IMG/VR virus record: IMGVR_UViG_3300009159_000255
Span: 1-27,385 of that record
Strand: one strand, 5' to 3'
Source: a virus
DNA: 27,385 nt
Shown here: positions 1-12,248 of the stretch, piece by piece
Position numbering within the stretch: the first letter of the stretch is position 1
Layout: each line of letters opens with the position of its first letter
Translations under genes and position numbers: made by a program
The notes under the pieces: generated by a model
Databases searched by the model: none
The model's input: only the letters and a program-made list of their open reading frames with translations
Told to the model about the DNA's origin: nothing

Positions 1-462
1 AAGACGAACACTCTGCCCAATTGGATAACGACCGCCGGCCTTCTTATATGCTTCGAGTAGACTTTCCATGGCATCATAGCACATCTTAGCAAACATTTCA
101 CAGCCTACACCCGGTACAATACGTAGATCACAGATTGCCCCACGCTCATGTGGAACACCCCTTGTTATACCATCATATCCAATGTCATTCATCTTCTTAA
201 AGAACTTAATATGTGGATCATCAGCAGCAATTACAAGTGTATGATCGAACATAGATTCAGACCAATCTTTAAACTGCTTTAGGCCACCAAAGTCAAAGAC
301 CCAATTACGGTCATCTAGTGTTTCGCTTTCGAATACTAACTTAATACCGAGACTATATCCGTGTAGTGTACTGCAATGGCTATGTGTGGCACGCCACTGA
401 CGAAAGCAACAACTAAGCCCTCTGTCTGTGCCATATGTCTTAGTTGAATAATACTTGCTCAC
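1..462 (-). CDS. queD: 6-carboxy-tetrahydropterin synthase QueD (3' end beyond window)
   Basis: QueD converts 7,8-dihydroneopterin triphosphate to 6-carboxytetrahydropterin, the second step of preQ0/7-deazaguanine synthesis after FolE. The visible 154 residues run off the window edge without a stop. They show the family's zinc and active-site segment at about 27-36 (HSHC then LHGY, i.e. CxxxHGY with Tyr where many homologues have His), a VFDFGGLK segment at 55-62, and FDHTL at 72-76. GTG at 462 was chosen as the start because it overlaps the TGA of the upstream gene in a GTGA arrangement used repeatedly in this genome and keeps the N-terminus short. It sits in the operon folE - 69 aa - 106 aa - queD. 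Family identity is recognised from motifs; coupling to the dpdA gene further upstream is an inference. Confidence 0.9.
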   Translation of the reverse strand, partial: MSKYYSTKTYGTDRGLSCCFRQWRATHSHCSTLHGYSLGIKLVFESETLDDRNWVFDFGGLKQFKDWSESMFDHTLVIAADDPHIKFFKKMNDIGYDGITRGVPHERGAICDLRIVPGVGCEMFAKMCYDAMESLLEAYKKAGGRYPIGQSVRL

Positions 463-779
463 CTTGTGATTCCTTTACGCATCATTTCCATAGTGATTGC
501 ATGTGCTACACGCTCTTCAAAGTTTTCATTTTGACTGATGACATGTAAGGCATATTCACTACGATCTTTAACCATGTCATAATGTCTAAATTCCAATACT
601 GTGCCGCCATCAGCACCGTAGATACTCAGTGTAAGTCCATGACTATCTAAACTTCCGTGCCCTGCATATTTTGCACTTGCAACTACTAGATTACTGGTAT
701 ATGGGGTTGATGGCTCATCATCACGAGTCTCCCACGCTTCTTTACACTTTTTTCTAAACCAATTATCAAACCACTTCAT
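459..779 (-). CDS. Conserved phage hypothetical protein, 106 aa
   Basis: I do not recognise a function. The 106-residue product starts at an ATG that overlaps the TGA of the preceding gene by 4 bases, and it ends in a TGA that overlaps the GTG of queD. It is therefore translated within the folE-queD operon. It has a charged, Trp-rich N-terminus (KWFDNWFRKK), a central beta-like region (LTLSIYGADGGTVLEF at about 49-64) and a helical C-terminus with several Met residues. No cysteine cluster, membrane segment or signal peptide is visible. It resembles small hypothetical proteins common in marine T4-like phages (recollection, not a search). Its position alone suggests co-expression with 7-deazaguanine synthesis, not a proven role in it. 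Confidence 0.75.
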   Translation of the reverse strand: MKWFDNWFRKKCKEAWETRDDEPSTPYTSNLVVASAKYAGHGSLDSHGLTLSIYGADGGTVLEFRHYDMVKDRSEYALHVISQNENFEERVAHAITMEMMRKGITR

Positions 780-985
780 TGTTCAATCTCCGTAATTGTT
801 TTTCTTCCCATTGTGTGATTTACTCTTGCACGAATATGTGCGTTCTCCCACGTCCAACATTCTCCAGTATCATCTTGAAAACATACCCACTGAAGATCAT
901 GTTCCGGACCGTAATCAATAATAAAGTGTGCTAACGCACGACCTTTAGGAGTCATTAATGGAATTGGTGGATCTAATCTAGTCAC
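776..985 (-). CDS. Small conserved phage protein, 69 aa
   Basis: A 69-residue protein between folE and the 106-aa gene, overlapping both by 4 bases. It begins with GTG at 985, inside the GTGA overlap with the folE stop. The sequence has features I associate with a widespread small protein of marine T4-like phages: a PPIPLMTPKGRALAHF segment, IDYGPEHDLQWVCF, and DDTGECWTW followed by Asn and Arg. The mix of aromatic residues, one GEC motif and little charge clustering suggests a compact beta fold. No function is known to me. The tight overlap suggests translational coupling between folE and queD. Confidence 0.75.
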   Translation of the reverse strand: MTRLDPPIPLMTPKGRALAHFIIDYGPEHDLQWVCFQDDTGECWTWENAHIRARVNHTMGRKTITEIEQ

Positions 986-1665
986 CGAGCATATTCCTGT
1001 TGTAGCTTAATGTTGTCAAAGAATTCCTTCTTTGTGCCAGCATCTTCATTGAATGCACCCTTAAGCACTGTAGTTTGTGTTAGCGAACTATGTGCCATAA
1101 TGCCTCTGTTCTCACAACAGCCGTGAGTTGCCTGTATATAAACAGCAACATTTTCACTGCCAGTTGCCTTTTGAATCTCACGAGCAATATCATTGCACAG
1201 TTCTTCCTGCAATGTACCACGTCGAGCACACCACTGTGCAATACGTGTATACTTGCTAAGTCCAATCAACTTGGTAGCAGCAATGATACCAATGTATGCA
1301 ACGCCAGTTACTGGCTGATGATGATGACTACACATCGACTTTAGTTCACTACGAACAACAAGCATACCGGTATATGCATCATTTCCGTCATTCGGAAAAC
1401 TAGTTGCATCTGGCGCTGGATTATAACGCCCACTCATTACTTCATTGAAGTACATCTTAGCAAGACGCTTTGCTGTGCCTTTACTATTTGGATCAGTCTC
1501 ACGATCAATTACAAGAGCATCCAATACATGTTCAAATGCTTCAGTTGTTTCTTCAATTAACCTGTCATATTCATCAAAATAGATATATTGTGAGATGTTA
1601 TCTCCAGCCCAATAACGGCCCCCGTCAGATTTAATACGATTACGAATAGTTTCTGAAACGCTCAT
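982..1665 (-). CDS. folE: GTP cyclohydrolase I (FolE)
   Basis: FolE converts GTP to 7,8-dihydroneopterin triphosphate, the entry step shared by folate and 7-deazaguanine (queuosine/preQ0) synthesis. All key motifs are present in order: SMCSHHHQP with the zinc Cys and catalytic His region (about 110-118), IGLSKYTRI (134-142), RRGTLQEEL (148-156), and HGCCENRG (about 179-186) with the second zinc Cys pair. The 227-aa length fits the family with a modest C-terminal tail. The ATG at 1665 has a strong upstream AAGGAAAT about 6 bases away. A sigma70-like promoter lies at 1709-1737. It leads an operon ending in queD, so here the enzyme most likely feeds 7-deazaguanine base synthesis for DNA modification rather than folate; that purpose is inferred from context. 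Confidence 0.95.
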   Translation of the reverse strand: MSVSETIRNRIKSDGGRYWAGDNISQYIYFDEYDRLIEETTEAFEHVLDALVIDRETDPNSKGTAKRLAKMYFNEVMSGRYNPAPDATSFPNDGNDAYTGMLVVRSELKSMCSHHHQPVTGVAYIGIIAATKLIGLSKYTRIAQWCARRGTLQEELCNDIAREIQKATGSENVAVYIQATHGCCENRGIMAHSSLTQTTVLKGAFNEDAGTKKEFFDNIKLQQEYAR

Positions 1666-1708
1666 TTAATTTCCTTATGATCACGCAGTAGGTATTGCGA
1701 TATGTTTT

Positions 1709-1737
1709 AATATACTTTATTTAGGCCTGTACTTCAA
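1709..1737 (-). promoter_or_regulatory. Sigma70-like promoter upstream of folE
   Basis: On the minus strand TTGAAG (1737-1732) is followed after exactly 17 bases by TATATT (1714-1709). Both boxes are close to the sigma70 consensus, with 4/6 and 5/6 matches. The -35 box overlaps the end of the sulfotransferase-like gene. Predicted transcription would begin near 1702, giving a leader of about 37 bases that contains the AAGGAAAT ribosome-binding site of folE. The same 17-base spacing and TATATTAA context recur in the promoter at 5570-5598. No start site has been mapped. Confidence 0.5.
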
Positions 1738-2372
1738 TATTTAAAATTCTGATCTGTAAAAATATCTGGATATTCGTTTTGATATTTTTTAAAGATAGCA
1801 TTACCTATGTTTTTAAGATTTTCTAGAGGTTCTAACTTATCCCATTTATTAAATGGTTGAGGTTTTGCGTTCATATTTAGTTTAAATCTTAAAGTAAATT
1901 TAATGTTTAAAATATTACATGCTTCTTCAATATTAATAACTTGGGGATAATTTAATACAATTGAAGTTTCCATTAGATCTTTAATGTTAACATACCAATT
2001 GCATATTTCTTTTACTTTAGTTGCAAAATATATTGGATTAATTACAAATTTTGTATCTTTATATTTGTTAACGTATTCTTCTACAGAAGTTGAATGAAAA
2101 TGATAAGTTCCTGTTTGTTCTGCTAACATAAAACTTGCTGCGATTTCAACTGGATTTCTAGTTATAATAATAGTTTTTCTTGATGGCAAATAAGATTCTA
2201 CTAATTCTCTATGGTGGGAATGTATTATATTTGATATATTTTCATCGAAAACAGTATCCTTATCGAGATGAATAAATTCAGAATTGCCAAAATGAAAAAT
2301 ACAATAGTTTTTAAGATAACTTGACAATTGTACACTACCGGCTCTGCCAGGACTTAATACAATAAAACTCAT
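1734..2372 (-). CDS. Sulfotransferase-like P-loop protein
   Basis: The 212-residue product looks like a PAPS-dependent sulfotransferase. The N-terminus (residues 3-20) has a beta strand followed by SPGRAGSVQLSSYL, a plausible 5'-phosphosulfate loop. Residues 67-80 (TIIITRNPVEIAAS) match the RxPxxxxxS 3'-phosphate-binding segment of sulfotransferases. The start ATG overlaps the TGA of the glycosyltransferase gene in an ATGA. Upstream in the same operon lies an APS-kinase-like enzyme that could supply PAPS. The acceptor is unknown and could be a glycan, a virion component or DNA. The gene seems more AT-rich than its operon partners, which hints at separate acquisition, though I did not compute this. 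A generic P-loop fold without sulfotransferase activity is the main alternative. Confidence 0.65.
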   Translation of the reverse strand: MSFIVLSPGRAGSVQLSSYLKNYCIFHFGNSEFIHLDKDTVFDENISNIIHSHHRELVESYLPSRKTIIITRNPVEIAASFMLAEQTGTYHFHSTSVEEYVNKYKDTKFVINPIYFATKVKEICNWYVNIKDLMETSIVLNYPQVINIEEACNILNIKFTLRFKLNMNAKPQPFNKWDKLEPLENLKNIGNAIFKKYQNEYPDIFTDQNFKY

Positions 2373-3448
2373 AGTGTATCTTTAATTACGTTGTATAGAT
2401 TATTTCCATTAAAGAAATTTCCAGTTGATGCATTATTTAAATTCTTTATAGTTCCAGGCAAGTCAGCATTATTACTACCCATTATATTACGAATTCTTTC
2501 CATTAAACGATTCTTATTACGCAGATAACTATCCCAATCTTTAGTCCAATCACTAGGATATTTAAAGAATGTGTCCCACATTTCATCATAACTTAAACGA
2601 TTTGGTACAAGTGGATATGTACCAACAATGGCACCTTCATATACTGAGATACCAAGAGTTTCTTGCAAATTAGCACTAAAAACAATCTTGCTCTCTGCTA
2701 GATGTGTGTGGTATTCGTGCTTGCTCAACTGATGGTCTTGTGCAACGAACCAATCGTATTCTGGCATTAATGCAGCAAGATCTCTGAAGATCTCCAATTG
2801 CTTCTCAGGAGCAAGACGATGGGGGAAAATAATCTTATCTTTCTTTACTGTATTGACATATGGCTCAAGTATATCATTTAGATATTCCATAGGCCAACCA
2901 ACAATATGAATCTTATCTGGATGCCATTCAATCATTGCATCACTTGAAGGTTCATCAAACAAATTAAGACAAAACATATCGAGATGGAATTTAGTAGCAA
3001 AGAAGTTGTGATCATAGCAATAGAACATACTAGATTCGGCATTGCGAACCCAGGGAGTATCGCCAATCAATCGTCCTAAGAAATCCTGGGGATCATAGGA
3101 TCCTGCATGCCACATTCCGCCTAGTTTAACTGGAATACCTAGCAATTCGCTCATATATTTCACTTGAATAACAGTTGGGTTCCACGCATCTGTATATAAG
3201 AAATAGTCTCCTGCTTTAACAGTTCCGTCTGCAAATAACTTAGAAATTTCAAGTAATTGCTGACTTTTGTAACTGTTAGTACCAGCAAAATTAAGGAACG
3301 CTCCGGGTGTTGTAGCCTGCGGAACATCGCCTCCACTAATAACAACTACACCCATGCCAGCAGACTTCATCTGCTCTGGAAGATACTGCTTCCATTGTGC
3401 GGTATAACGTGTTTCAACTGCTTCTAAATCAACTAGATAAACTGTCAT
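2369..3448 (-). CDS. GT-B family glycosyltransferase (GT4-like)
   Basis: A 359-residue protein with the layout of a GT-B glycosyltransferase. The C-terminal half carries FPHRLAPEKQ (208-217), AESKIVFSAN (251-260) and QETLGISVYEGAIVG (262-276). These match the nucleotide-sugar-binding region with the EGxxxG signature typical of GT4-like enzymes, followed by PLVPNRLSYDEMW. The N-terminal half starts MTVYLVDLE and has an acceptor-domain-like alternation of strands and helices. It lies between the 94-aa gene and the sulfotransferase-like gene, overlapping each by 4 bases. The sugar donor and acceptor cannot be read from the sequence; both DNA-base glycosylation and surface-glycan synthesis are possible. 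Confidence 0.8.
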   Translation of the reverse strand: MTVYLVDLEAVETRYTAQWKQYLPEQMKSAGMGVVVISGGDVPQATTPGAFLNFAGTNSYKSQQLLEISKLFADGTVKAGDYFLYTDAWNPTVIQVKYMSELLGIPVKLGGMWHAGSYDPQDFLGRLIGDTPWVRNAESSMFYCYDHNFFATKFHLDMFCLNLFDEPSSDAMIEWHPDKIHIVGWPMEYLNDILEPYVNTVKKDKIIFPHRLAPEKQLEIFRDLAALMPEYDWFVAQDHQLSKHEYHTHLAESKIVFSANLQETLGISVYEGAIVGTYPLVPNRLSYDEMWDTFFKYPSDWTKDWDSYLRNKNRLMERIRNIMGSNNADLPGTIKNLNNASTGNFFNGNNLYNVIKDTL

Positions 3449-3729
3449 GCTCGTTCCTTATAATAGTTACTGGACATCCATTGCATTAAACAGATAAGCC
3501 CTTGGCCTTCGTCTTTAAATTTTACTGTAATCATACGATAATCTTTGTACTCAGGATTAGCAATAATAACATAGTCTTCATACATCTTCAAATTTTCTCT
3601 TTGAAGTAATGCTTTTAATCCTGTTAAAGTAGCATTGCGATTGTGCCATTTACCTAAACTGGCATTGACCAATGGAAAATCAACTGCTTCCCAAGTTTCA
3701 CTTAACCATTTTTCAACGGTCCTACTCAC
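3445..3729 (-). CDS. Hypothetical protein, 94 aa, in sulfation/glycosylation operon
   Basis: Not recognised. The 94-residue protein begins with GTG at 3729 within a GTGA overlap with the upstream kinase/nucleotidyltransferase gene, and its TGA overlaps the ATG of the glycosyltransferase. It has an aromatic N-terminus (VEKWLSETWEAVDFP), a central helix with Lys/Arg, and a beta-rich stretch with DYVIIANPEYKDYRMITVKF. No metal-binding cluster, membrane segment or nucleotide-binding loop is seen. Its fixed place between the activation enzyme and the transferases makes an accessory or carrier role conceivable, but this is only positional. Confidence 0.7.
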   Translation of the reverse strand: MSRTVEKWLSETWEAVDFPLVNASLGKWHNRNATLTGLKALLQRENLKMYEDYVIIANPEYKDYRMITVKFKDEGQGLICLMQWMSSNYYKERA

Positions 3730-4511
3730 ATGCCCATTTCCTTACGTATATTAGTAGCACTAATCGAAGTTACCGATTCGTCAAAAGTTTCTTCGCCACT
3801 TGTATATCCAACACCTCTGCCCCAACCAATATGTACAATGTTTGGAACAACTTGTATCTCGTACTTGCCTTGATATAGAGGATCGAGATCTTTTCGGATA
3901 AATCGCTTTACTTGCTCAATCTCAAATGGATTACTACCCTGCCATCCTTGTACATCGCGCACTTGGATAATAACTTGTCCAGTACGCTCTAATAGACGCT
4001 TAAACAATGCACGATGCCCATCATGCCACGGTTGCCAACGTCCAAGCATTTGTACAGTTTCCTTTCGCCAATCAAATATTGGGCGGCGACGATTAGCACA
4101 GATATGATCCCAAATAAAAGCAGCCCATTTAATAGCATTCTGTTCCGGCACACGGAAATCATATAGATCAGGTTCGATAAATGCTTTGTTAGTATCTTCG
4201 TAGCGACCGCGATCAATGGTATCAACCCATATGATCCAATCTGCTTTGAAATTATTGCGCATCTCAACTAGTGGAGCAACAAAGTCAGCAATTACAAAAT
4301 CCATCGTGCTCTTATCTGCTAGTTCACGCATACGGATACTTTGACGTATACGTCCGCTGTCACTAAAGTCCCAATCATTGTATTGCTGGCGAACAGCATC
4401 AGCATTAAACCAATCTACAGTATAGAAATCTGTTTCCATACGCTTTTTAAGTTCTTGAGCAAGTGTAGTCTTTCCTGCTCCTGGTAGTCCCATAATTAAA
4501 ATCTTTTGCAT
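3726..4511 (-). CDS. APS-kinase-like P-loop kinase fused to HxGH nucleotidyltransferase
   Basis: A two-domain 261-residue enzyme. Residues 1-140 resemble APS kinase: Walker A GLPGAGKT (8-15), NADAVRQQYNDWDFSDSGRIRQSIR (split here as NADAVR at 36-41 and DWDFSDSGRIRQ at 46-57), and ADFVAPLVEMR at 75-85, the counterpart of the FISPYR region. Residues 152-261 form a small cytidylyl/adenylyltransferase with GRWQPWHDGH (157-166) and ISATNIRKE (250-258), the two signature sites of NMNAT/PPAT-type enzymes. By analogy with PAPS synthase, which also joins an APS kinase to an adenylyltransferase, it might activate sulfate; however, the second domain is closer to NMNAT-type than to classical ATP sulfurylase. 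It heads the operon that includes a glycosyltransferase and a sulfotransferase-like protein. The start has a good AAAGGAAAT ribosome-binding site. Confidence 0.8.
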   Translation of the reverse strand: MQKILIMGLPGAGKTTLAQELKKRMETDFYTVDWFNADAVRQQYNDWDFSDSGRIRQSIRMRELADKSTMDFVIADFVAPLVEMRNNFKADWIIWVDTIDRGRYEDTNKAFIEPDLYDFRVPEQNAIKWAAFIWDHICANRRRPIFDWRKETVQMLGRWQPWHDGHRALFKRLLERTGQVIIQVRDVQGWQGSNPFEIEQVKRFIRKDLDPLYQGKYEIQVVPNIVHIGWGRGVGYTSGEETFDESVTSISATNIRKEMGM

Positions 4512-4534
4512 TTAATTTCCTTTTAATAAAGAGA

Positions 4535-4554
4535 GGCTAGTTTTTACACTAGCC
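4535..4554 (-). terminator. Terminator-like hairpin after the 4584-5563 operon
   Basis: A perfect 7-bp inverted repeat (GGCTAGT ... ACTAGCC) with a 6-base loop lies in the 72-base gap between the 73-aa gene and the kinase/nucleotidyltransferase gene. Read in the minus direction it is followed by the T-rich TCTCTTTATT. This is a reasonable intrinsic terminator for the operon entering from 5563. The T-tract is interrupted by C, so efficiency may be partial and allow read-through into the next operon. Confidence 0.55.
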
Positions 4555-4583
4555 CCACAACTCTATCCTGGCAGTATGTAGAA

Positions 4584-4805
4584 TTAGTGACGGCTTACTC
4601 GACGAGGAGCAACATTAGCATAGTTAGCATCCTCTGTCCAGTTGTTAATAACCCTATCCCCTCGACGGATACGTTCAAATTGACCGTATACGGTATTACG
4701 CTTGTAAAGATCAGACTCGTTAAAGACATGACCATATTCTACACAAAATTCACGATATGCATCTAATTCGTCAAACACACGAGCAACATTGCGATTCTTA
4801 ATCAT
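4584..4805 (-). CDS. Small conserved phage protein, 73 aa
   Basis: The 73-residue protein starts at ATG 4805, one base after the TAA of the T-fold-like gene, with GGGAAG just upstream. A longer in-frame start at 4841 would overlap the previous gene and is less likely. The product (starting MIKNRNVARVFDELDAYREF) has a helical N-terminus, then VEYGHVFNESDLYKRN, and a basic region FERIRRGDRVINNW. I recognise the pattern as a common small protein of marine T4-like phages with no known function. The many charged residues suggest a soluble protein, possibly nucleic-acid or protein binding. It is the last gene before the terminator-like hairpin. Confidence 0.75.
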   Translation of the reverse strand: MIKNRNVARVFDELDAYREFCVEYGHVFNESDLYKRNTVYGQFERIRRGDRVINNWTEDANYANVAPRRVSRH

Positions 4806-4806
4806 A

Positions 4807-5229
4807 TTAGACTTCCCATTTGATGTTACAACCATTTTCATTATCTTCGCTTACTTCAATCTCTACTGCCCTGCCAGGATATCGAGTTGAAATTAGTTTA
4901 TACAAGTCTTCTGCTATCATTTCGCAACTCTTGTAATCAAGTTGTAGTGTAGCAGTATTATACAAACTTGTCAACCAGCGTTTAAACTGGATAAACTCAA
5001 TGTCCCTGTCATCATGAAATACCTCAATGGCAACACGGAAATGGAAGATGTGACGATGAGGATATCCAAGAAAACTGACATCATACTCATCGCCTGTAGC
5101 CAACTTTGGATCATCCAAAGCGGCAGGATACTTGTGGATACCTTCACGGGCAAAAGTCACCCAAATCATACTCTTGCGTGTAATTGGCATTCGATCAGTC
5201 ACCATCTTCTTCTTTTTAAAGGGGTTCAT
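4807..5229 (-). CDS. T-fold-like (QueD/PTPS-related?) conserved phage protein
   Basis: With the ATG at 5229 (one base past the previous gene's stop) the product is 140 residues, beginning MNPFKKKK. Longer in-frame starts at 5244 and 5358 would overlap the previous gene and add an unlikely hydrophobic leader. Residues 55-70 (GYPHRHIFHFRVAIEV) recall the His-rich strand of QueD/6-pyruvoyl-tetrahydropterin synthases. DIEFIQFKRWLTSLY follows at the place of the DFGxLK segment. SCEMIAEDLYKLI (101-113) and VEIEVSEDNENG (122-133) recall the PTxExLAxxL and VxVxET(P)xxG regions. This makes a divergent tunnelling-fold protein plausible. Catalytic zinc ligands are not complete, so it may be a non-catalytic relative or a coincidental likeness. 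It shares the operon with the 110-aa and 73-aa genes. Confidence 0.6.
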   Translation of the reverse strand: MNPFKKKKMVTDRMPITRKSMIWVTFAREGIHKYPAALDDPKLATGDEYDVSFLGYPHRHIFHFRVAIEVFHDDRDIEFIQFKRWLTSLYNTATLQLDYKSCEMIAEDLYKLISTRYPGRAVEIEVSEDNENGCNIKWEV

Positions 5230-5230
5230 A

Positions 5231-5563
5231 TTAATTACTACCATTTTGAGTCTCTTCGTTATAATCTTTATAATCTTCAATATAGTTGTCAAGTACTCGC
5301 TTAAGATTAACAACATCATCATGATTAGGAATAACATCATGCCATTCAATACTACCACGACCGATAAGGAAGCCGGTAGCCATCTTTAGACGCTCCCAAA
5401 AATTGAGATGTCCTTTATCAGCCTGTAACATGAAGTAAAGTTCTGGTTCATCAGTACCAGTAGAGTCAAAATATTTGACTTGGATGATGTGCTCGGGACC
5501 GTGACATTGACAGCCAATGTAGATCTTTTCGCTCTTGTCAGTGTAGTCGGTGCGTGTGCTCAT
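5231..5563 (-). CDS. Conserved phage protein, 110 aa, first gene of a promoter-led operon
   Basis: A 110-residue protein with IYIGCQCHGPEHIIQVKYF near the N-terminus, EPELYFMLQADKG in the middle and FLIGRGSIEWHDVIP followed by a helical acidic end. I recall similar sequences in marine T4-like phages but know no function. The paired CxC and nearby His residues (CQCHGPEH) could bind a metal. The start at 5563 has no Shine-Dalgarno sequence, and the predicted transcription start falls within a base or two of the ATG, so the message may be leaderless. The start codon also lies inside one arm of a perfect 13-bp palindrome. Two small genes follow with 1-base gaps. Confidence 0.75.
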   Translation of the reverse strand: MSTRTDYTDKSEKIYIGCQCHGPEHIIQVKYFDSTGTDEPELYFMLQADKGHLNFWERLKMATGFLIGRGSIEWHDVIPNHDDVVNLKRVLDNYIEDYKDYNEETQNGSN

Positions 5564-5587
5564 AGTGTTAATATACTATGAGCACAC
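5554..5587. repeat. Perfect 13-bp inverted repeat overlapping promoter and start codon
   Basis: Arms at 5554-5566 (gtgtgctcatagt) and 5575-5587 (actatgagcacac) pair perfectly across an 8-base spacer; a G-T and a T-A pair could extend the stem inside. The repeat lies between the -35 box and the start codon, covers one edge of the -10 box, and one arm contains the ATG of the 110-aa gene. As DNA it resembles an operator for a dimeric repressor. As RNA, a leaderless transcript would contain only one arm, so start-codon sequestration would apply only to read-through messages from the upstream gene. There is no T-tract on either side to make it a classic terminator. Confidence 0.75.
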
Positions 5588-5598
5588 TGGTTTGTCAA
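5570..5598 (-). promoter_or_regulatory. Near-consensus sigma70 promoter, likely leaderless
   Basis: On the minus strand a perfect TTGACA (5598-5593) is followed after exactly 17 bases by TATATT (5575-5570). The -35 box lies immediately after the stop codon of the outer-membrane protein gene. The expected start site, about 7 bases past the -10 box, is at or next to the A of the ATG at 5563. This is the best bacterial-type promoter I see in the window and should be active with unmodified host polymerase, consistent with early expression. Confidence 0.7.
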
Positions 5599-7614
5599 TT
5601 AAAAGTTTATTCTAAGACCTATAGTTCCTGATACACCAGTTAGGTTAGAACTCTTATCTATACCAACTGAAGCATTTAGGAATATGCCTTTTTCAATTTC
5701 AGTGTTTGCTGTAGCACGGATGCTGCCAACAGTTTTGAAATCTTTGCTCTGTGTAACACGACCTTCAACACCAAAATTCTTATCAAAGTCATATCTCAAA
5801 CCAACATATGGATTGAAAGCAGTACTTGATTTTGCAGTTGGAATTGTTGAAAGGAATGGGCTACCACTTTCACTTATTCCGCTGATTGAACTGCTTACTA
5901 CAGTTACACCAACTAGTGGGCGGAAGTCATAGTATGTGTCTGCACTATAAACAGTTACATCGCCATATAGGATCTTTTGATTAAACTTAGCACTGTTTGA
6001 TAATGCAAAGATTGGGAGACTTGTAGTTCCGTTATACTTGCTATAACCAAATCCTACAGCAGTCTTAACCCAAACATCCTTGTCTTTGATGAAAGCGTAT
6101 GCAGTTGCATCATAACTATCGTTTTCAACTTTACTATTGCTTAAGCCACCGCTTTTAGCACTGCCATAACTAACAGCAACTCCAAACTTATTAGCATCAG
6201 CAGTCCATTGATAACCAGCAACTGTGCCGCCATTTGTCATAGTACCTACAGTCTTGTAGTAACTAGCAGTCGGACTAATCCAAGCACCATCATTCTTATT
6301 AATTGGATCAATTAGGAATGGATTAAATGAACGCAACTTAACAGCATTGGCGAATCCAGCATTGTTAAAAGTAGCATTGCTTGAACTTGTGCTACCTAGA
6401 CGCTGCTCACTTGGCTTAACAGTATCTTCATCATATACAGTACCATTAGTCTTCACAACAGTGCTATCACTCATGTCTTGATTAGTAACAGGAGTAACAG
6501 CAACTCTGCTAGTAACTGCCCTTGCATCATACTTGTCAATTGTGCGAGTAACAACGCCAGTTGTGGCAACATTTGTTCTTGCATCTGTTTGTACAATTGC
6601 AATCTGTGTCCATGCACCATAAACAAAGAATGGTGTGCCTTTAATATAAGTTAAGTATGGAGCACCGACTGGAGTTGGACCTGTAGGAACAACAGGAGTA
6701 ACACCGGGCATTGTACAATCTACTGTACACCCCGGGACAGTTCCTGGAATTCCGCCGCCTGCGCCAGAAGTAACAGCAGTAGTTCCTGCGGCTAATGTGC
6801 TTGGCCCAAAAATATAAGCATATTCAAAAGTTACTGATGCACCGGCAGCAAGTGTTGGTAGATAGAACCCAAGACCAATGGTATTATCACCATCGCCAAT
6901 GTTAGTTCCACTATAGTAAGTAACAGGATCTGTAGTCCACCCCGTAACGCCTGCACCTGCGTTAGTTGCAGCAGTATAAAGACCTAGTGCATACTTACTA
7001 ATTAGTGCTTCACTAAACACAACGTTCTTAACACCAATTGGACTAAAGCCCAAAGTGTTTGTAGTTGCTGAACTATCTCCTGTTGCTGCTCTTGCATCCG
7101 GATCTGTAAAACGACCAAAGTATAGATTAGTCATATTAACAGTTGTAGTAAGTTTTGTTTTGATATCTACAACTTTGTCGGGATTATTAAATCTAACATC
7201 GTTAGTTAATGAAAAGTCAGTTGTAGAACCAGTCCATACAACACGATTGTCAAATGTAGCACCACCATAAGCAATACCACTATAGTTTGTTAGAATGCCG
7301 CCAGTAATAGCAACAGCGCCAGTATTATTATTTGTTTTACTAGTAGTTACTCCAGCATCGTTAGTATATTTTACAGTAAAGCCTTCAAACGGACTTCCTG
7401 GTGTTAGATAATCGTATGCTGGGTTAAATGTTCTTGTTCCGGTATTATCATATAAGATACCTGGGGCAGTATTTCCTTTACTGCCAATAGTTCCATAATC
7501 ACTTGTGCCAATTTTAACATAGTCACCGGTTAATGTAAAAACCGTGCCAGTTGTTTGAGCATATGCAGAGGAAGCAAATAGAATTCCTACTGCTGCTAAC
7601 AGATTTTTAATCAC
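5599..7614 (-). CDS. Secreted autotransporter-like outer-membrane beta-barrel protein
   Basis: The 671-residue protein starts with a clear Sec signal peptide: a Lys, a hydrophobic core, and SAYA|Q with cleavage near residue 19-20. A Thr/Gly/Asn-rich beta passenger of about 260 residues follows, then a Gly/Pro-rich linker with two Cys (about 287-320). The C-terminal part of about 230 residues has alternating strands ending in GTIGLRINF, the terminal-Phe signature recognised by BAM. This fits an autotransporter or outer-membrane porin-like protein for a Gram-negative envelope. GTG at 7614 is preceded by GGAGA, and an ATAAATA element lies at 7677-7684. Phages use outer-membrane proteins to block rival phages or alter the surface (for example Lom of lambda); a virion adhesin is the alternative, but the signal peptide argues against that. 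It may have come from a host. Confidence 0.85.
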   Translation of the reverse strand: MIKNLLAAVGILFASSAYAQTTGTVFTLTGDYVKIGTSDYGTIGSKGNTAPGILYDNTGTRTFNPAYDYLTPGSPFEGFTVKYTNDAGVTTSKTNNNTGAVAITGGILTNYSGIAYGGATFDNRVVWTGSTTDFSLTNDVRFNNPDKVVDIKTKLTTTVNMTNLYFGRFTDPDARAATGDSSATTNTLGFSPIGVKNVVFSEALISKYALGLYTAATNAGAGVTGWTTDPVTYYSGTNIGDGDNTIGLGFYLPTLAAGASVTFEYAYIFGPSTLAAGTTAVTSGAGGGIPGTVPGCTVDCTMPGVTPVVPTGPTPVGAPYLTYIKGTPFFVYGAWTQIAIVQTDARTNVATTGVVTRTIDKYDARAVTSRVAVTPVTNQDMSDSTVVKTNGTVYDEDTVKPSEQRLGSTSSSNATFNNAGFANAVKLRSFNPFLIDPINKNDGAWISPTASYYKTVGTMTNGGTVAGYQWTADANKFGVAVSYGSAKSGGLSNSKVENDSYDATAYAFIKDKDVWVKTAVGFGYSKYNGTTSLPIFALSNSAKFNQKILYGDVTVYSADTYYDFRPLVGVTVVSSSISGISESGSPFLSTIPTAKSSTAFNPYVGLRYDFDKNFGVEGRVTQSKDFKTVGSIRATANTEIEKGIFLNASVGIDKSSNLTGVSGTIGLRINF

Positions 7615-7675
7615 AATTTTTCTCCAAATTGATTAAATTTTTCGAAATACTATGATTAATTGAAAAAATACTCTA

Positions 7676-8131
7676 TTATTTATTGCTCTGCATATAATAG
7701 GTTTGTGGGAATATATCTTTCTTAATTACACCATAATCGTTTGGTCCGTGCTTAACAATATAATCATTGCCAGCAGTGTAATTAAGTGGTTCGCCCCAAC
7801 TTGTATTAACAACTCCATCGTGGTCAGCCAACTTAGCTATCTTGATAATTTTCTTTGGTGTTGCTGTGCCATCGCCATTATCGTCATATAGCCCAGCAAA
7901 CTTCTCAGGCGGAATAGGATACTGCTCGCCTTTTGGCCCAGTAATGATCTTATAGCCTGCTTCATACTTAACAGGACCTTCTAGAGTATCTAGTGTTCCT
8001 GCTGAGTCCGCAGTTGTATATTTTACTGGATTGGCTTTCTTATATGTTTCAAACGCACCAGTATCAAACCAGTTGTCGTTAATCGATTCACTTAACATAT
8101 CAAGATACTTTCTGAAAAATTTAGGATCCAT
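7676..8131 (-). CDS. PGDYG-like protein with two related repeats
   Basis: A 151-residue protein whose N-terminus (MDPKFFRKYLDMLSES) resembles a leader seen on several cyanophage proteins. Two related segments follow: residues about 56-86 (YEAGYKIITGPKGEQYPI then FAGLYD) and about 117-146 (YTAGNDYIVKHGPNDYGVI then FPQTYY). The second fits the PGDYG domain pattern of GDYxVxxPxxxYxVxxxxFxxxY, though PGDYG itself reads PNDYG here. Function of PGDYG proteins is not established. The ATG at 8131 has no ribosome-binding site and lies 5 bases from an AATAAATA element, so it may be leaderless. LSES near residue 14-16 fits an (I/L)xE|x prohead-protease site, suggesting virion packaging (inference). Confidence 0.7.
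   Translation of the reverse strand: MDPKFFRKYLDMLSESINDNWFDTGAFETYKKANPVKYTTADSAGTLDTLEGPVKYEAGYKIITGPKGEQYPIPPEKFAGLYDDNGDGTATPKKIIKIAKLADHDGVVNTSWGEPLNYTAGNDYIVKHGPNDYGVIKKDIFPQTYYMQSNK
7677..7684 (-). promoter_or_regulatory. T4-late-promoter-like element AATAAATA upstream of the outer-membrane protein gene
   Basis: The minus strand reads AATAAATA, 7 of 8 matches to the T4 late consensus TATAAATA, 62 bases upstream of the GTG start. It overlaps the stop of the PGDYG-like gene. The spacer is AT-rich and could hold other promoter elements. In an AT-rich genome such matches arise by chance, so this call depends on the recurrence of the core ATAAATA before four other genes. Confidence 0.4.
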
Positions 8132-8136
8132 GTTAA

Positions 8137-8144
8137 TATTTATT
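8137..8144 (-). promoter_or_regulatory. T4-late-promoter-like element AATAAATA adjacent to the PGDYG-like gene start
   Basis: AATAAATA on the minus strand ends only 5 bases before the ATG at 8131, and it includes the stop codon of the upstream gene. If used as a late -10 element, transcription would start at or within a base or two of the ATG, giving a leaderless message. That agrees with the lack of a Shine-Dalgarno sequence here. Confidence 0.45.
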
Positions 8145-8661
8145 TTACTTCGGTGTCTTTAGTATACTGATCCCAATATGTATACTTGTCTTTAGACATA
8201 AGATCATGTAGTTGATGTGTCCATACTCCTGGATTAGTAGCGCCCCAAGTACGGTCGTCTATCTTGATAGTGGTGTTATAGTTAAGCAGACTGATGTAAG
8301 GCAACTTTACGCTGAGCATTGGGACAAAGCGATCATGTTCGCAAAGCCCTGATTCCAGCAAGCCTTCTGCTTGTTTAACATCTAAATCCAAGGTGCACCA
8401 ATAACCTGTATCCAAGCAAGCCTTAATAACATCAGCCCATTTATTCCATTCATCAGCATCATTTACAGCAATATCTGGAAAACTTTGACTTGTGCCAAAA
8501 TAGATATGCTTTACAATATGTAATGATGCTTGCTCCAGAATCTCGTCAATAGGAGGTGTTCCCACAACAAATAATGTAAACATACCGTGACAGATAGTAT
8601 GCTCAACTTCATATCCGGTGAAATATACTACGTTCTGTCGTTCTTCTGTATTCAGTCCCAT
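8140..8661 (-). CDS. Conserved phage protein of unknown function, 173 aa
   Basis: I recall similar proteins in marine T4-like phages but know no function. Visible features are YEVEHTICHGMFTLFVVG (18-35), a HIYFGTSQSFPD stretch, an amphipathic helix around EWNKWADVIKACL, YWCTLDLDVKQAE (107-119), and a strongly conserved-looking C-terminal half with FVPMLSVKLPYI and TIKIDDRTWGATNPGVWTHQLHDL. The Asp/His content and the TLDLDV segment would suit an enzyme or a metal-binding fold, but no named motif is present. Its ATG overlaps the end of the alcohol-dehydrogenase-like gene by 10 bases, placing it in the dpdA operon and making a role in the same pathway plausible. Confidence 0.75.
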   Translation of the reverse strand: MGLNTEERQNVVYFTGYEVEHTICHGMFTLFVVGTPPIDEILEQASLHIVKHIYFGTSQSFPDIAVNDADEWNKWADVIKACLDTGYWCTLDLDVKQAEGLLESGLCEHDRFVPMLSVKLPYISLLNYNTTIKIDDRTWGATNPGVWTHQLHDLMSKDKYTYWDQYTKDTEVK

Positions 8662-9566
8662 ACTAAGTAGCCCCTACTGTATCCTGCCGAACGATTCGCA
8701 CCATCTTCAAAAGCCTGCTGCCATTCTGTATTGCGATTATAACCCCTAGTCCATAATCCGTCAACCTTCAATCCACAGTTTGTCATATATGTTACTGCTG
8801 TAGTCATTGCGGTATAGAATTCTTCATTACGAGGACTTGGACATATTATTGTACAATTCTTCCAAAGTAGATTAGCAAATGAAGTTGTAATTGCAGGATG
8901 CTTCTCTGCTGCCAGCACAACTATGGCGTTATTCTTCAGTACATCTTTTGTGAATACTGTATCATCCTGCTTGAGATCAATTACAACATCATACTGTCCT
9001 GTAGGCTCTTTGGATAGTTCAATGTGATCTTGCCAAAGATGTCGATTGCTATTTCCAACTACGGTAATTGCGCCGTCATATGAATGTATCAGCATAGTTT
9101 GAAACACAATCCAAGATAGGAAACCTGAACCTAGAATTAGCAAACGCTTGTTCTCAGTATTGTATGTAGGGAACCCTTCTGTGGCTACATTGATTCCACA
9201 AGCAATAGGTTCAATAATCCATTTTGGATCAAGTTCTGGAACAACTACAAACTCAAATCTGCCAGTATTGTAGTAATCGCTATATGCTGGTTCGCCACGA
9301 GTTGCTACAAAGTCGCCAACTTTTACAGGCTCTAACCCCTGTCGATTAACCTTTGAGCCAACCTTAGTAACAATGCCTAAGCCTTCGTGCCCCTGCATAT
9401 GAATAGGCAATGGACCAAAGTTACCCTGCATCATATCAATATCGCTGCGACAAATACCTGTCATTGCAGCCTTTACCTCAATCTCATTATCTGTAGGTTC
9501 AGGCTTATCCCATGACGTTTCTACAAATTTACCATCACCTGCTGTATAAAGAATTCTACTTCTCAT
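8652..9566 (-). CDS. Zinc-type alcohol dehydrogenase-like (MDR) oxidoreductase
   Basis: A 304-residue medium-chain dehydrogenase/reductase. GICRSDIDMM (37-46) carries the catalytic-zinc Cys39. MQGHEGLGIVTKVGSKV (57-73) carries the GHE zinc motif (His60, Glu61). KVGDFVATRG follows, and the cofactor domain has LLILGSGFLSW at about 151-161. The structural-zinc four-Cys loop of classical alcohol dehydrogenases is missing and the protein is shorter than the usual 340-350 residues. The substrate is unknown. It lies immediately after a Gfo/Idh/MocA-type dehydrogenase and downstream of dpdA, with an 11-base overlap, so the two probably act in one pathway, such as making a sugar or tailoring a modified base (inference). 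Confidence 0.85.
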   Translation of the reverse strand: MRSRILYTAGDGKFVETSWDKPEPTDNEIEVKAAMTGICRSDIDMMQGNFGPLPIHMQGHEGLGIVTKVGSKVNRQGLEPVKVGDFVATRGEPAYSDYYNTGRFEFVVVPELDPKWIIEPIACGINVATEGFPTYNTENKRLLILGSGFLSWIVFQTMLIHSYDGAITVVGNSNRHLWQDHIELSKEPTGQYDVVIDLKQDDTVFTKDVLKNNAIVVLAAEKHPAITTSFANLLWKNCTIICPSPRNEEFYTAMTTAVTYMTNCGLKVDGLWTRGYNRNTEWQQAFEDGANRSAGYSRGYLVWD

Positions 9567-10446
9567 CGTATGGCCCTAACATATTGTGTATCCAAAGATC
9601 CTGTTCCAGTTGATCTCGCCACCACACTGGATTACTGATGTTTTCGAATGCTGTTTCAATCATCTTCTTATATGCTGAAACAGGACATAGCCCAAGTTCA
9701 AACCGACGTTCCCTGTCGCCAATAAAAGCAATACTTTGATCATCTTGTTCTAAACTACGCCAATTAGCAGTTAGATTATAATGTACTTTTCCAACTCTTA
9801 ATTCAATATTAGCATAATCATCCACGTCGTATAGCCCATCAGGATTGACATTGCCGTATGTTGTATCTAATAGATCTACTAACTTCCACCGCTGTTCTTT
9901 TACAAACTTCAATACATTAGAGTCTTGATATATTGTGGGATTTAATACTGCAACCCAACTAAGCAAATGCGGCATTAGATCTCTGCTAACTCCACCGAAG
10001 CTATAATGACTATTAGTAAACCAACTACCTGGATTTGGTACGCGATTGTAATTGATCCAGTTAATGTTTACATTAGTACTGACATTATTCAACGCCTTAA
10101 AGAATACAAGTTCTTCACGATATTGATTGTTCTTTACCATGATAAACTTAGTTTCGGGACAAGAATCAACCATGATTTTCCAATCGTGTGCTGTCTTAAC
10201 TCCTGGCTTTTCAACAAACACAATTTTGCTATGCGCTGCAACAAAATAAGCAATTTGTTCATGTGTATGATTTGGCGTGCAGATAAAAGCAGCATCAAAT
10301 TTTGGATGAATATCCAATGCTAATCCTATACTTTTAAAGTCAGCAGCGCGATTACCTGTATCAACTGTAACAACTTCGTGTCCTAAATCTTGGAGAACTT
10401 CTTTATAAAGTTCTCCAATGCCCATTCCAATAATTAAACTTTTCAT
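9556..10446 (-). CDS. Gfo/Idh/MocA-family NAD(P)-dependent oxidoreductase
   Basis: A 296-residue protein with a Rossmann N-terminus: LIIGMGIGELY (4-14) as the dinucleotide loop, then DAAFICTPNHTHEQIAYFV (51-69) and IVFVEKPG (75-82), the family's hallmark EKP motif. YSFGGVSRDLMPHLLSWVA (148-166) corresponds to the GGxxxDxxxH region that holds substrate-contacting His in Gfo/Idh/MocA enzymes. The glycine loop is GMGIG rather than GxGxxG with a following Ala, a small variation. Members oxidise or reduce sugars and inositols. The gene begins 3 bases after the dpdA stop and overlaps the MDR gene, so the three are co-transcribed. The actual substrate cannot be deduced. Confidence 0.88.
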   Translation of the reverse strand: MKSLIIGMGIGELYKEVLQDLGHEVVTVDTGNRAADFKSIGLALDIHPKFDAAFICTPNHTHEQIAYFVAAHSKIVFVEKPGVKTAHDWKIMVDSCPETKFIMVKNNQYREELVFFKALNNVSTNVNINWINYNRVPNPGSWFTNSHYSFGGVSRDLMPHLLSWVAVLNPTIYQDSNVLKFVKEQRWKLVDLLDTTYGNVNPDGLYDVDDYANIELRVGKVHYNLTANWRSLEQDDQSIAFIGDRERRFELGLCPVSAYKKMIETAFENISNPVWWRDQLEQDLWIHNMLGPYDEK

Positions 10447-10449
10447 GTC

Positions 10450-11877
10450 TCACTCAAATAGTGCATTAAATTGTGTATTAGCGTTAATTGTCTTCTTACC
10501 AGTATAACCCCGTTGACCTATAATGTCAATCCAAAACTTATTATGTTCGTCAATAAGATCCAAACTGCGTTGGTTGCCGGCATTTTTAATAATTTCATCT
10601 ACAAGTTCACGGAATCTAATTCCCGTATTCTTGCGAATAAGCATGCCTGGTACAACACCCATATCGTACTGTTCATTAGCAGTAAGTACAGCATTGATAT
10701 GCATCCAAACATTATGTGCCATTTGGATAGCATAACTAAAACTATCCCAACTGGTTTTTCCTTCTTTACCTATTAGATTAAGATCGCCTGGAGCGTAGCA
10801 ACAGACGTCATTAACTGTCATATGTTTAGATATATGGCTATCCATAAAGGTAGGGATAATACCGTCACTGCGAGCCACATCTCCATATAGCCTAGTGTCC
10901 GTTGCATATTTCTTGTTGTCGATGCCGGCTTCCATGCCGTAGGTCCATTTTTTGCCATGCTCTATCCTTAGTTGATCATAAACAAGACCTTTAGCATTAG
11001 CCATGAATGGACTTGCACAATCAAAACTAATAGTAAAGTTCTCATTATGGTATTTACGAACAGAACGCTGAATATCAGTTAGCAGTGTAGCCCACTCTAA
11101 CTTACTTGTTCCAAGAAAATGCATCCAATCGTGTGTGCCTTTTTCAAGTAATCCATCACGAATCATTTGTACAATACGACGTAGCACAAGATGAATGTCA
11201 CACATATTCTGACCGCCCATAGCCCACCCATTGAAGTGTGTTTGGGGATACAGTTTTGGATCATTGAAGTCCTTCATTTGATTATACCAATCATCTGCTT
11301 CAGTGTGATTCTCACCCTGTAGCACGTTAAGGAACTTACACTTGCCTGTACGATGCTTCATCCAGTATTCGTTATTGATACGAGTACCTTTTACTGCTTC
11401 CGCGTAAGTACTAATGCCAGTGGCAGCAGCACCAGCAGGACTGCGAGCAACCCAAGCGGGAATATCAAGCACCATACCATAATCCATATAAGCGTCCATC
11501 CAACGCAGAACACCGTCACGCTTAGAATGTGCCTTAGGGCAATTAGGATCTCGCCAATCGCCTGCCCATACTCCCTTACCAATTTGGAATCCACCACTAT
11601 CCCCCAATACAAAACTATTTGGATTACGATTTCGAACCATTTCTTCTTTTTCGTCTGGCCCGACTTCTAGAATTGCGTGACCAGCAGAATACAGACACCA
11701 AGGATAATAAAAGTAACTAATATCCGGATCAAGAAAATCGAGGCCTCTAATACCATTTTGCATTGCTGCTGGTACACGACTTGCTTTCATCTTCTTTCCA
11801 TACTTGCAAATTTGGAAAGTATAAAAACTACTCAGTGCTGGTAAGAATACTGCGTAATCTTTCTGTCTTAGAGACAT
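10450..11877 (-). CDS. dpdA: DpdA-like 7-deazaguanine DNA transglycosylase
   Basis: The 475-residue protein is a tRNA-guanine-transglycosylase relative of the DpdA type, which exchanges guanine in DNA for a 7-deazaguanine. TGT landmarks appear in order: LGDSGGFQIG (91-100) with the base-binding Asp93, FLNVLQGEN (182-190), FNGWAMGG (215-222) and TISFDCASPF (282-291) with the putative nucleophile Asp286. The classical TGT C-terminal zinc site (CxCxxC...H) is not apparent, only Cys359-Cys360, which separates it from cellular TGT. ATG 11877 has AGGA 4 bases upstream; a TTG at 11895 overlapping the previous stop as TTGA also has GAAGGA, so 6 extra residues are possible. It follows gp43 and gp45 and leads into two oxidoreductases. 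folE and queD elsewhere in the window support the role. Confidence 0.9.
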   Translation of the reverse strand: MSLRQKDYAVFLPALSSFYTFQICKYGKKMKASRVPAAMQNGIRGLDFLDPDISYFYYPWCLYSAGHAILEVGPDEKEEMVRNRNPNSFVLGDSGGFQIGKGVWAGDWRDPNCPKAHSKRDGVLRWMDAYMDYGMVLDIPAWVARSPAGAAATGISTYAEAVKGTRINNEYWMKHRTGKCKFLNVLQGENHTEADDWYNQMKDFNDPKLYPQTHFNGWAMGGQNMCDIHLVLRRIVQMIRDGLLEKGTHDWMHFLGTSKLEWATLLTDIQRSVRKYHNENFTISFDCASPFMANAKGLVYDQLRIEHGKKWTYGMEAGIDNKKYATDTRLYGDVARSDGIIPTFMDSHISKHMTVNDVCCYAPGDLNLIGKEGKTSWDSFSYAIQMAHNVWMHINAVLTANEQYDMGVVPGMLIRKNTGIRFRELVDEIIKNAGNQRSLDLIDEHNKFWIDIIGQRGYTGKKTINANTQFNALFE

Positions 11878-11891
11878 ATTATCCTGGGGTA

Positions 11892-12248
11892 TCAAATATA
11901 CATTCCTTCTTCGCCTATTTTATCCATATCTTCTTCGTTTATTTTATCAGTCGGAGAGTTTGACTCAGTCATTGCAGCAGATGCATAACTATGAAATGAT
12001 TTAGACCTATCGCCTTTGCCGTTTATCTTCTTTCCACATTCTTTACATTCCCAAAAATAAGTTTTACTTACGATTGGTTGATACCCATTCCATTTTGGCG
12101 TCCTTGTTATTTCATGTGAACTTGGAGCAAACTTATTTAGACATTGGTTGAAGGAACAAACAATTTGCTCCTCCTCAACCAATCTAATAAATCTAATATC
12201 ATTTTTTAATGGTTTAAGTTGATATTCTTTCTTTTCTTTTTTAGGCAT
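11892..12248 (-). CDS. Small zinc-ribbon-like protein between clamp and dpdA
   Basis: A 118-residue protein starting MPKKEKKEYQ at ATG 12248, which is right after the clamp stop; an earlier in-frame ATG at 12329 would overlap the clamp and is rejected. Four cysteines form two pairs, C31 and C36, then C68 and C71 (WECKECGKK), consistent with a zinc ribbon. The N-terminus is very basic and the C-terminus acidic. No homology is recognised. Its end overlaps the alternative TTG start of dpdA, so it is probably translated with dpdA. A nucleic-acid-binding or replication-accessory function is possible. T4 gp33/gp55-type late factors act with the clamp, but I see no specific similarity to them. Confidence 0.7.
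   Translation of the reverse strand: MPKKEKKEYQLKPLKNDIRFIRLVEEEQIVCSFNQCLNKFAPSSHEITRTPKWNGYQPIVSKTYFWECKECGKKINGKGDRSKSFHSYASAAMTESNSPTDKINEEDMDKIGEEGMYI

What the first reader, a model, noticed from the sequence alone, without database searches (positions are those of the whole stretch)
1..11877. Likely 7-deazaguanine DNA hypermodification system (folE, queD, dpdA)
The sequence shows a DpdA-type transglycosylase (TGT motifs DSGGFQ, LQGEN, GWAMGG, SFDCASP) together with FolE and QueD, the first two enzymes toward preQ0. In known phages such sets replace part of the genomic guanine with 7-deazaguanines, protecting against restriction. Here the genes are in separate operons: dpdA follows gp43 and gp45 directly, while folE and queD are near the other end. 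queE and queC are not in this window, so either they lie outside or the host supplies the intermediate. The T-fold-like gene at 4807-5229 could be a diverged member of the same pathway.
Basis: partly seen in the sequence, partly recalled or inferred. Interest (0 to 1): 0.8.

Follow-up and report, generated by a model that had tools for sequence, protein, structure and literature searches.

The report
Phage DNA deazaguanine system with glycosyltransferase
This uncultivated virus carries genes to swap guanines in its DNA for a look-alike base, and next to them a sugar-adding enzyme resembling one that decorates the same class of base in transfer RNA, which hints at an undescribed sugar-coated DNA letter.

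Summary
FolE (982-1665), the start of a QueD (1-462, cut by the contig end) and a TGT-fold protein (10450-11895) are there. Pfam, PHROGs and NCBIfam miss the last, but its AlphaFold model matches only tRNA-guanine transglycosylases at E<=0.001 (33 of 33). In two close relatives QueE follows QueD.

The glycosyltransferase tracks DpdA: 19 of 19 phage records, 4 on weak DpdA hits; 14 of 15 GTDB loci. In alphaproteobacterial islands a YhhQ-like transporter gene sits directly upstream of it (9 of 9). Its profile aligns with queuosine mannosyltransferase (97.9%), though a pooled generic GT4 profile also matches (95.9%).

Best reading: DpdA inserts a phage-made 7-deazaguanine and the glycosyltransferase adds a sugar. 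No base has been measured. Ten paper searches listed no description, but the key paper (Cui 2023) and a 2024 review are not held. New variant of a known kind.

The parts
10450..11895 (-). DpdA-like DNA-guanine transglycosylase (481 aa from TTG; 475 aa from ATG at 11877), a subfamily that the Pfam TGT model does not recognise
   Evidence: AlphaFold model matches TGTs only at E<=0.001; D99, D144, D292 invariant; 35% identical to a Pseudomonas phage PA5oct protein
9556..10446 (-). Gfo/Idh/MocA-type oxidoreductase, EKP motif kept
   Evidence: PF01408 1.1e-9; DpdA upstream and ADH downstream in 16 of 17 loci found with it
8652..9566 (-). medium-chain zinc alcohol dehydrogenase-like protein, zinc ligands kept
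   Evidence: PF08240 3.4e-10; homologue between those of MocA and fam2 in PA5oct
8140..8661 (-). fam2, 173 aa, unknown function
   Evidence: downstream of dpdA in 61 of 61 loci with 2.5 kb or more of downstream sequence; 13 phage records, the PA5oct group and ACP17; model pLDDT 86.9 without a clear PDB match
4807..5229 (-). fam3, 140 aa, possible diverged T-fold (QueD/PTPS-like) enzyme
   Evidence: 51 of 51 loci with 4 kb or more downstream; 26 phage records; near FolE in 9 of 10 inspected; hhalign against QueD only 15%
2369..3448 (-). GT-B (GT4-like) glycosyltransferase with E-x7-E (263/271), queuosine mannosyltransferase (QTMAN) being the best match tried
   Evidence: PF00534 8e-12 in the X1 homologue; hhalign to QTMAN 97.9%, E 3.8e-13; controls; motifs
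982..1665 (-). FolE, GTP cyclohydrolase I
   Evidence: PF01227 3.2e-39, phrog_2197 5.6e-45
1..462 (-). QueD (6-carboxytetrahydropterin synthase-like), 3' end cut by the contig end
   Evidence: PF01242 5.3e-12

Best explanation
This is part of a large virus's system for replacing guanine in its own DNA with a 7-deazaguanine and then decorating that base with a sugar. FolE, QueD and (just outside the window, judging by relatives) QueE make 7-carboxy-7-deazaguanine from GTP. DpdA exchanges it, or a form altered by fam3, for guanine in DNA. The GT-B enzyme then glycosylates the inserted base, as QTMAN does with queuosine in tRNA. MocA and ADH probably prepare or alter the sugar or the base side chain. 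The bulky base would block restriction enzymes. Shown: the genes, the TGT fold, the linkage, the family matches. Inferred: the exact base, the glycosylation, the roles of fam2, fam3, MocA and ADH, and protection. My estimate is about 0.9 for a DpdA-type DNA modification and about 0.55 for glycosylation of that base.
For: TGT fold. FolE and QueD in the window; QueE next in two close relatives. GT downstream of dpdA in 39 of 40 loci with 6.5 kb or more of downstream sequence. GT in 19 phage records, all with a DpdA: 12 by tblastn hits over at least 80% of the window protein, ACP17 x2 and X1 with a DpdA2, 4 only by weak hits. Seeded with the GT alignment, 14 of 15 GTDB loci carry a DpdA. YhhQ-like gene directly upstream of GT in 8 of 8 alphaproteobacterial islands, plus G089. 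Among 148 genomes of one order GT occurs in 2 and DpdA in the same 2, one being the query genome. GT profile against QTMAN: 97.9%, E 3.8e-13, 281 columns; 7 of 7 single QTMANs at 91.9-97.7%, 12 of 12 single generic GT4s at 29.1% or less. QueF: 0 of 17 records; QueC over the cut-off in none of ACP17, X1, BUCT-ZZ01, PA5oct, Phosso.
Against: No nucleoside has been measured. A pooled profile of 12 generic GT4s also matches the GT (95.9%, E 5.7e-9) and QTMAN (98.0%); X1's GT reaches only 40% against the QTMAN profile; one accessory second-GT sequence matches the GT profile at 85% (all). So membership in QTMAN is not shown. The sugar, the acceptor atom and the donor are unknown; 7-carboxy-7-deazaguanine lacks the cyclopentenediol that QTMAN acts on (recalled). 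In PA5oct MocA lacks EKP and ADH lacks the zinc ligands, so a catalytic role is not universal. Vibrio phage 2.275.O has the same DpdA subfamily with QueC and QueF but is not among the GT records. Many counted loci are close relatives and not independent. QueC-like PP-loop frames exist in some relatives, so preQ0 could be the base there.
Confidence: 0.55

Rival explanations
1. Ordinary DpdA system: an unglycosylated 7-deazaguanine (7-carboxy-, 7-deazaguanine itself, or preQ0 with host help) is put in DNA; the glycosyltransferase, MocA and ADH do something else, such as altering host surface sugars.
For: The bases reported in the parts of PMC6884629 that I read (dG+, dADG, dPreQ0, dPreQ1) carry no sugar. 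phiST, RHph_I1_18, D479 and Ahp1 have fam3 and proteins that I take from memory for DpdA3-like, yet are not among the 19 GT records; Vibrio phage 2.275.O has the window's DpdA subfamily and is not among them either.
Against: The GT follows DpdA across lineages and in bacterial islands where a transporter gene is the main other shared gene, and its profile is near QTMAN.
Confidence: 0.33
2. The TGT-fold protein modifies host or phage tRNA, boosting queuosine, and DNA is untouched.
For: The fold matches tRNA TGTs; the first enzymes are shared with queuosine synthesis.
Against: No CxCxxC motif in 36 distinct family members; no PF01702 match; distant similarity, through PA5oct, to ACP17's enzyme (E 0.004), whose search finds nt-1, presumably the protein that Hutinet et al. 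name DpdA2; the gene lies in a replication gene cluster.
Confidence: 0.07
3. The glycosyltransferase acts on DNA but on another base (for example a hydroxymethylated pyrimidine), and its link to DpdA is that both are anti-restriction genes.
For: Phage T4 glucosylates hydroxymethylcytosine (recalled; start of an abstract in the listing); anti-restriction genes may cluster.
Against: GT is next to DpdA and a YhhQ-like gene in bacterial islands. Pyrimidine hydroxymethylation genes were not searched for.
Confidence: 0.05

Closest known systems
Phage DpdA2 systems (Vibrio phage nt-1; Hutinet et al. 2019, PMC6884629)
   Same: FolE, QueD, QueE and a TGT-fold transglycosylase outside the Pfam TGT model; ACP17, X1 and BUCT-ZZ01 use a DpdA2-type enzyme and carry fam3 and a GT like the window's
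   Different: window DpdA is 16-17% identical to these three in alignment A7, and the ACP17 search reaches only two Pseudomonas records, both pf16, so not the PA5oct group; adds GT, MocA, ADH and fam2; in the relatives searched no QueF, and QueC over its cut-off in few; ArcS and Gat-QueC were not searched
QTMAN, tRNA-queuosine mannosyltransferase (PF12038; function recalled)
   Same: GT-B enzyme, profile match 97.9% over 281 columns
   Different: no PF12038 hit in any of 34 members; expected substrate is DNA; pooled generic GT4 profile also matches
Bacterial dpd islands (dpdA-K; PMC11888242, passages read)
   Same: chromosomal DpdA with, in about 9% of islands, YhhQ
   Different: the islands here have GT, mostly protein X, in four of nine a second GT, in six of nine a small recombinase-like gene; dpdB-K were not searched for
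T4 DNA glucosyltransferases (recalled; search listing)
   Same: sugar added to modified phage DNA (proposed here)
   Different: T4 acts on hydroxymethylcytosine; here the acceptor would be a 7-deazaguanine; not compared by sequence

Membership tests
TGT/DpdA transglycosylase superfamily | TGT-like fold | tested here: met
   33 of 33 PDB matches at E<=0.001 are TGTs; TM-score at most 0.44 by query length, 0.55 by target length
TGT/DpdA transglycosylase superfamily | conserved aspartates in DSGGFQ and in the nucleophile motif (SFDC) | tested here: met
   D99 and D292 invariant in A1, 33 sequences, and in A7, 8 sequences; assignment to TGT catalytic residues is recalled
TGT/DpdA transglycosylase superfamily | Pfam PF01702 match | tested here: not met
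   no match in the window or in any of 33 members; the DpdA2-type proteins of X1 and ACP17 also fail
tRNA TGT | CxCxxC zinc motif (recalled) | tested here: not met
   absent in 36 distinct sequences, 33 in A1 and 8 in A7, five shared
DpdA (DNA-acting) | inserts a 7-deazaguanine into DNA | not testable with these tools
   needs nucleoside mass spectrometry
DpdA2 subfamily | direct sequence similarity to nt-1 type DpdA2 | tested here: inconclusive
   only weak: PA5oct relative against the ACP17 protein, blastp E 0.004; the window protein itself E 6.1
GTP cyclohydrolase I (FolE) | PF01227 over the cut-off | tested here: met
   134.6 bits against a cut-off of 27
QueD | PTPS domain | tested here: met
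   PF01242 46.2 bits against 22.4; TIGR03367 equivalog cut-off not reached on the truncated frame
QTMAN | QTMAN_N (PF12038) match | tested here: not met
   none in 34 members at E<=1
QTMAN | closer to QTMAN than to other GT4 enzymes | tested here: inconclusive
   single sequences separate cleanly, a pooled generic profile does not
GT-B / GT4 glycosyltransferase | Glycos_transf_1 domain and E-x7-E | tested here: met
   PF00534 8e-12 over the cut-off in X1; weaker in 15 of 34 members of A4 (best 7e-4) and 0.11 in the window protein; E-x7-E in 6 of 7 GTs listed, not BUCT-ZZ01
bacterial dpd island | dpdB and dpdC beside dpdA | not tested
   no search for dpdB-K was made

The most novel reading that the evidence does not exclude
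A glycosylated 7-deazaguanine exists as a DNA base. Large tailed phages make it from GTP (FolE, QueD, QueE) with DpdA and a QTMAN-like glycosyltransferase, some adding a MocA/ADH pair to alter the sugar. Alphaproteobacteria carry a stripped-down module, YhhQ-GT-DpdA, mostly with protein X and in some a second GT and recombinase genes, that makes it from an imported precursor, perhaps as a self-mark in defence.
Probability: 0.5. Interest if true: 0.88.

Novelty: new variant of a known kind. Interest (0 to 1): 0.74.

Why it matters
7-deazaguanine bases in phage DNA are known, but in what I could read none carries a sugar. A glycosylated one would join two strategies known apart (base replacement by DpdA, DNA glycosylation as in T4) and mirror queuosine glycosylation in tRNA. 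It also points to bacterial islands that may use the same base.

Tried and rejected
The Pfam, PHROGs and NCBIfam scans did not identify DpdA, nor did PDB sequence searches; only the fold did. fam2: no PDB match by sequence (best E 0.76); Foldseek best E 0.025; VIA-align Z at most 7.3, with STAS-type proteins first and, over 126-127 residues, QueE at Z 6.1, inside the noise range that the tool states. fam2 against DpdA by hhalign: 0.2%. fam3 against PDB: none. GT against PDB: best E 0.43 and 0.11. Two viral-contig scans with the PA5oct and Vibrio DpdA found nothing. QueC-like PP-loop frames were seen in L085 and L088; Pfam QueC matched 8 of 23 records at E<=0.001 but was over its cut-off in only 2, so QueC is not claimed. 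The name DpdA3 for the phiST, RHph_I1_18, D479 and Ahp1 proteins (related to each other) and the findings of Cui et al. 2023 (7-carboxy-7-deazaguanine, 7-deazaguanine and a decarboxylase DpdL in phages) are recalled; that paper and a 2024 review are not held, so whether fam3 is DpdL could not be checked. In one search several generic GT4 controls were read in wrong frames (L167, L170, L173 and L178; of these only L173 entered the comparison); one search repeats all twelve in the frame of the match. An earlier count said 13 of 15 for DpdA in GTDB loci; a recount gives 14 of 15.
Full report
What the window is. A 27,385-base IMG/VR virus fragment. The main genes lie on the minus strand. A family B DNA polymerase (13852-16500, PF00136 1e-35) is nearest to those of Sinorhizobium phage Phosso (51%), Agrobacterium phage Atu_ph07 (48%) and Vibrio phage 2.275.O (44%), all with records over 340 kb, so the source is probably a large tailed phage (inference).

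The observation. FolE (982-1665) is certain. QueD (1-462) is a PTPS-family protein cut by the contig end. The 10450-11895 product has no match in Pfam, PHROGs or NCBIfam. Among 33 members D99, D144 and D292 are invariant, and none of 36 distinct sequences has the CxCxxC motif of tRNA TGTs (motif recalled). The AlphaFold model (pLDDT 78.6, from 55 fairly close sequences) matches tRNA-guanine transglycosylases in 33 of 33 PDB hits at E<=0.001, best 1.7e-5. Cultured relatives are eleven Pseudomonas records of the PA5oct group (35%), Vibrio phage 2.275.O (33%) and Phosso (29%); five more records give only weak hits, E 7e-3 to 8e-3. In Vibrio 2.275.O genes annotated as QueF, a YhhQ-type transporter, QueC and FolE lie within about 6 kb of it (QueC confirmed).

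The pathway. In two close relatives (L001, L002) the DNA beyond QueD encodes a QueE with CNLACSFCDTYFD; in one of them (L100) an HhH-GPD protein (PF00730 1.6e-9) lies between. QueE of either type is present in 33 of 35 relatives with 9 kb or more downstream of dpdA. QueD reaches the Pfam cut-off in 9 of 23 records searched; most are fragments. QueC exceeds its cut-off in 2 of 23 (8 of 23 at E<=0.001) and in 0 of 7 in a second set, two of them shared with the first, that includes ACP17, X1, BUCT-ZZ01, PA5oct and Phosso (1 of 7 at E<=0.001). QueF: 0 of 17, a set without Vibrio 2.275.O. So several of these phages can make 7-carboxy-7-deazaguanine and apparently not preQ0 without the host (inference from the pathway given in PMC13329287, passages).

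Downstream of dpdA in L001-L080, counted only where the locus reaches far enough: fam2 61 of 61, fam3 51 of 51, the glycosyltransferase 39 of 40, FolE 34 of 35. The exceptions: L005 has a 948-aa ORF inserted and ends with its contig; L001 has FolE further on, in L100. These loci share 61-93% DpdA identity and are not independent. In the window MocA (9556-10446) and ADH (8652-9566) stand between dpdA and fam2; this pair is in only 3 of the 80 loci. A scan seeded with MocA found 17 loci (three on contigs already held as L001, L002, L005); ADH is in 17 of 17, fam3 in 17, DpdA, fam2 and GT in 16 each (the contigs of L121 and L123 end before DpdA and GT could show; L119 shows no fam2). In PA5oct three adjacent genes are MocA (33%, 1e-41), ADH (37%, 3e-61) and fam2 (47%, 8e-52), about 25 kb downstream of its DpdA-GT-fam3 run. 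EKP in MocA and the zinc ligands in ADH are kept in 22 of 23 rows each and lost in PA5oct (three contigs appear twice).

The glycosyltransferase. In 50,697 phage records tblastn finds it in 19. All 19 have a DpdA: 12 by near full-length hits of the window type, ACP17 (two records) and X1 as DpdA2 type, and PhiXhv-12, -15, -16 and Ep032 only by weak hits at E 7e-3. By my grouping these are about five lineages. ACP17 has QueD-FolE-fam2-DpdA2-GT-fam3-QueE in one run; X1 has FolE, GT, DpdA2, fam3, QueE; cyanophage BUCT-ZZ01, not among the 19, has QueE, QueD, FolE, a second GT, DpdA2, fam3 and a diverged GT (blastp 2e-13). The ACP17 enzyme finds nt-1 and KVP40, presumably the DpdA2 named by Hutinet et al. 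(the accession was not compared).

Bacterial islands. A scan of GTDB genomes with the GT alignment gave 15 loci; 14 also hold a DpdA of the window's type. The exception, L138, is a 4.6 kb contig whose sister contig from the same MAG (L149) has DpdA. L135 to L137 look like phage contigs in MAGs (gp43, gp45 and FolE present). Eight are alphaproteobacterial (L139-L146; class recalled from the names). There a YhhQ-like gene lies directly upstream of GT in 8 of 8, plus G089; of five tested, all five match PF02592 and two exceed its cut-off. Of these nine, eight have a protein related to X (585 aa in Shimia, no Pfam match; fragmentary or weak in some), four a second GT and six a small recombinase-like protein. 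Of eight host genomes three have a strong QueC (E 1.2e-54 or better); a fourth passes the cut-off weakly (4.4e-5) and the other four do not, which suits an imported precursor in some. In 148 genomes of one order GT occurs in 2 and DpdA in the same 2, one of them the query genome.

What the glycosyltransferase may act on. Its profile (11 sequences) aligns with seven bacterial QTMAN proteins at 97.9%, E 3.8e-13, over 281 columns; the window-type members alone give 95.6% over 58 columns. Singly, seven of seven QTMANs reach 91.9-97.7% and twelve of twelve generic GT4s stay at or below 29.1%; conversely ten of eleven GTs reach 87% or more against the QTMAN profile, X1's 40%, generic enzymes at most 45.5%; three column shuffles give 0.1-0.3%. 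Against this, a pooled profile of the twelve generic enzymes reaches 95.9%, QTMAN matches that pool at 98.0%, and one of two second-GT sequences reaches 85%. So it is a GT4-like enzyme for which QTMAN is the best match tried, not a proven QTMAN.

Mechanism and limits. I take it that DpdA inserts a phage-made 7-deazaguanine and that the GT adds a sugar. The identity of the base, the sugar, and the roles of MocA, ADH, fam2 and fam3 are inference. fam3 may be T-fold-like (weak) and could be the decarboxylase that I recall from Cui et al. 2023, which I could not read.

Literature. Ten searches (the lists of 20, 59, 68 and 139 were capped) listed no paper whose title and start of abstract describe a glycosyltransferase acting with DpdA or a glycosylated 7-deazaguanine in DNA; the library lacks most subscription papers. 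Read in part: PMC6884629 (abstract, first two of three parts of Results, passages). Passages only: PMC13282480, PMC9025141, PMC9301287, PMC12783734, PMC13329287, PMC11888242, PMC12028318.

Verdict.

Noticed in passing
X has no Pfam match (one tested).
   Followed up: partly
L100:14940-15383 (-): HhH-GPD DNA-glycosylase-like gene between QueD and QueE in a close relative. An enzyme that may handle modified or damaged bases.
   Followed up: no
window 5599-7614 (-): 671-aa ORF with a signal-like start and, by eye, an ending like that of outer membrane beta-barrels; no Pfam match. L001, L003 and L005 also have large ORFs (659-948 aa) near this place or next to dpdA.
   Followed up: no
window 3726-4511 (-): Kinase-like domain (PF01583 6e-9) with a weak cytidylyltransferase-like C-terminal match (PF01467 0.016); phrog_10255 2.9e-48.
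   Followed up: no
L061:4189-4638, L033:7582-8370, L053:8433-9263: Many relatives carry a nucleotidyltransferase-like, a HAD-like and an NAD-epimerase-like gene (families 6, 11, 13; 54, 44 and 40 of 81 loci) just upstream of the clamp gene: possible sugar-nucleotide synthesis. Functions read by eye.
   Followed up: no
L085:1075-1680, L088:958-1713: PP-loop proteins with a QueC-like C-terminal cysteine cluster, below the Pfam QueC cut-off.
   Followed up: partly
window 20986-24543 (-): 1185-aa ORF whose N-terminus looks like a nucleotidyltransferase, with further domain-like stretches and a HAD-like C-terminus (by eye).
   Followed up: no
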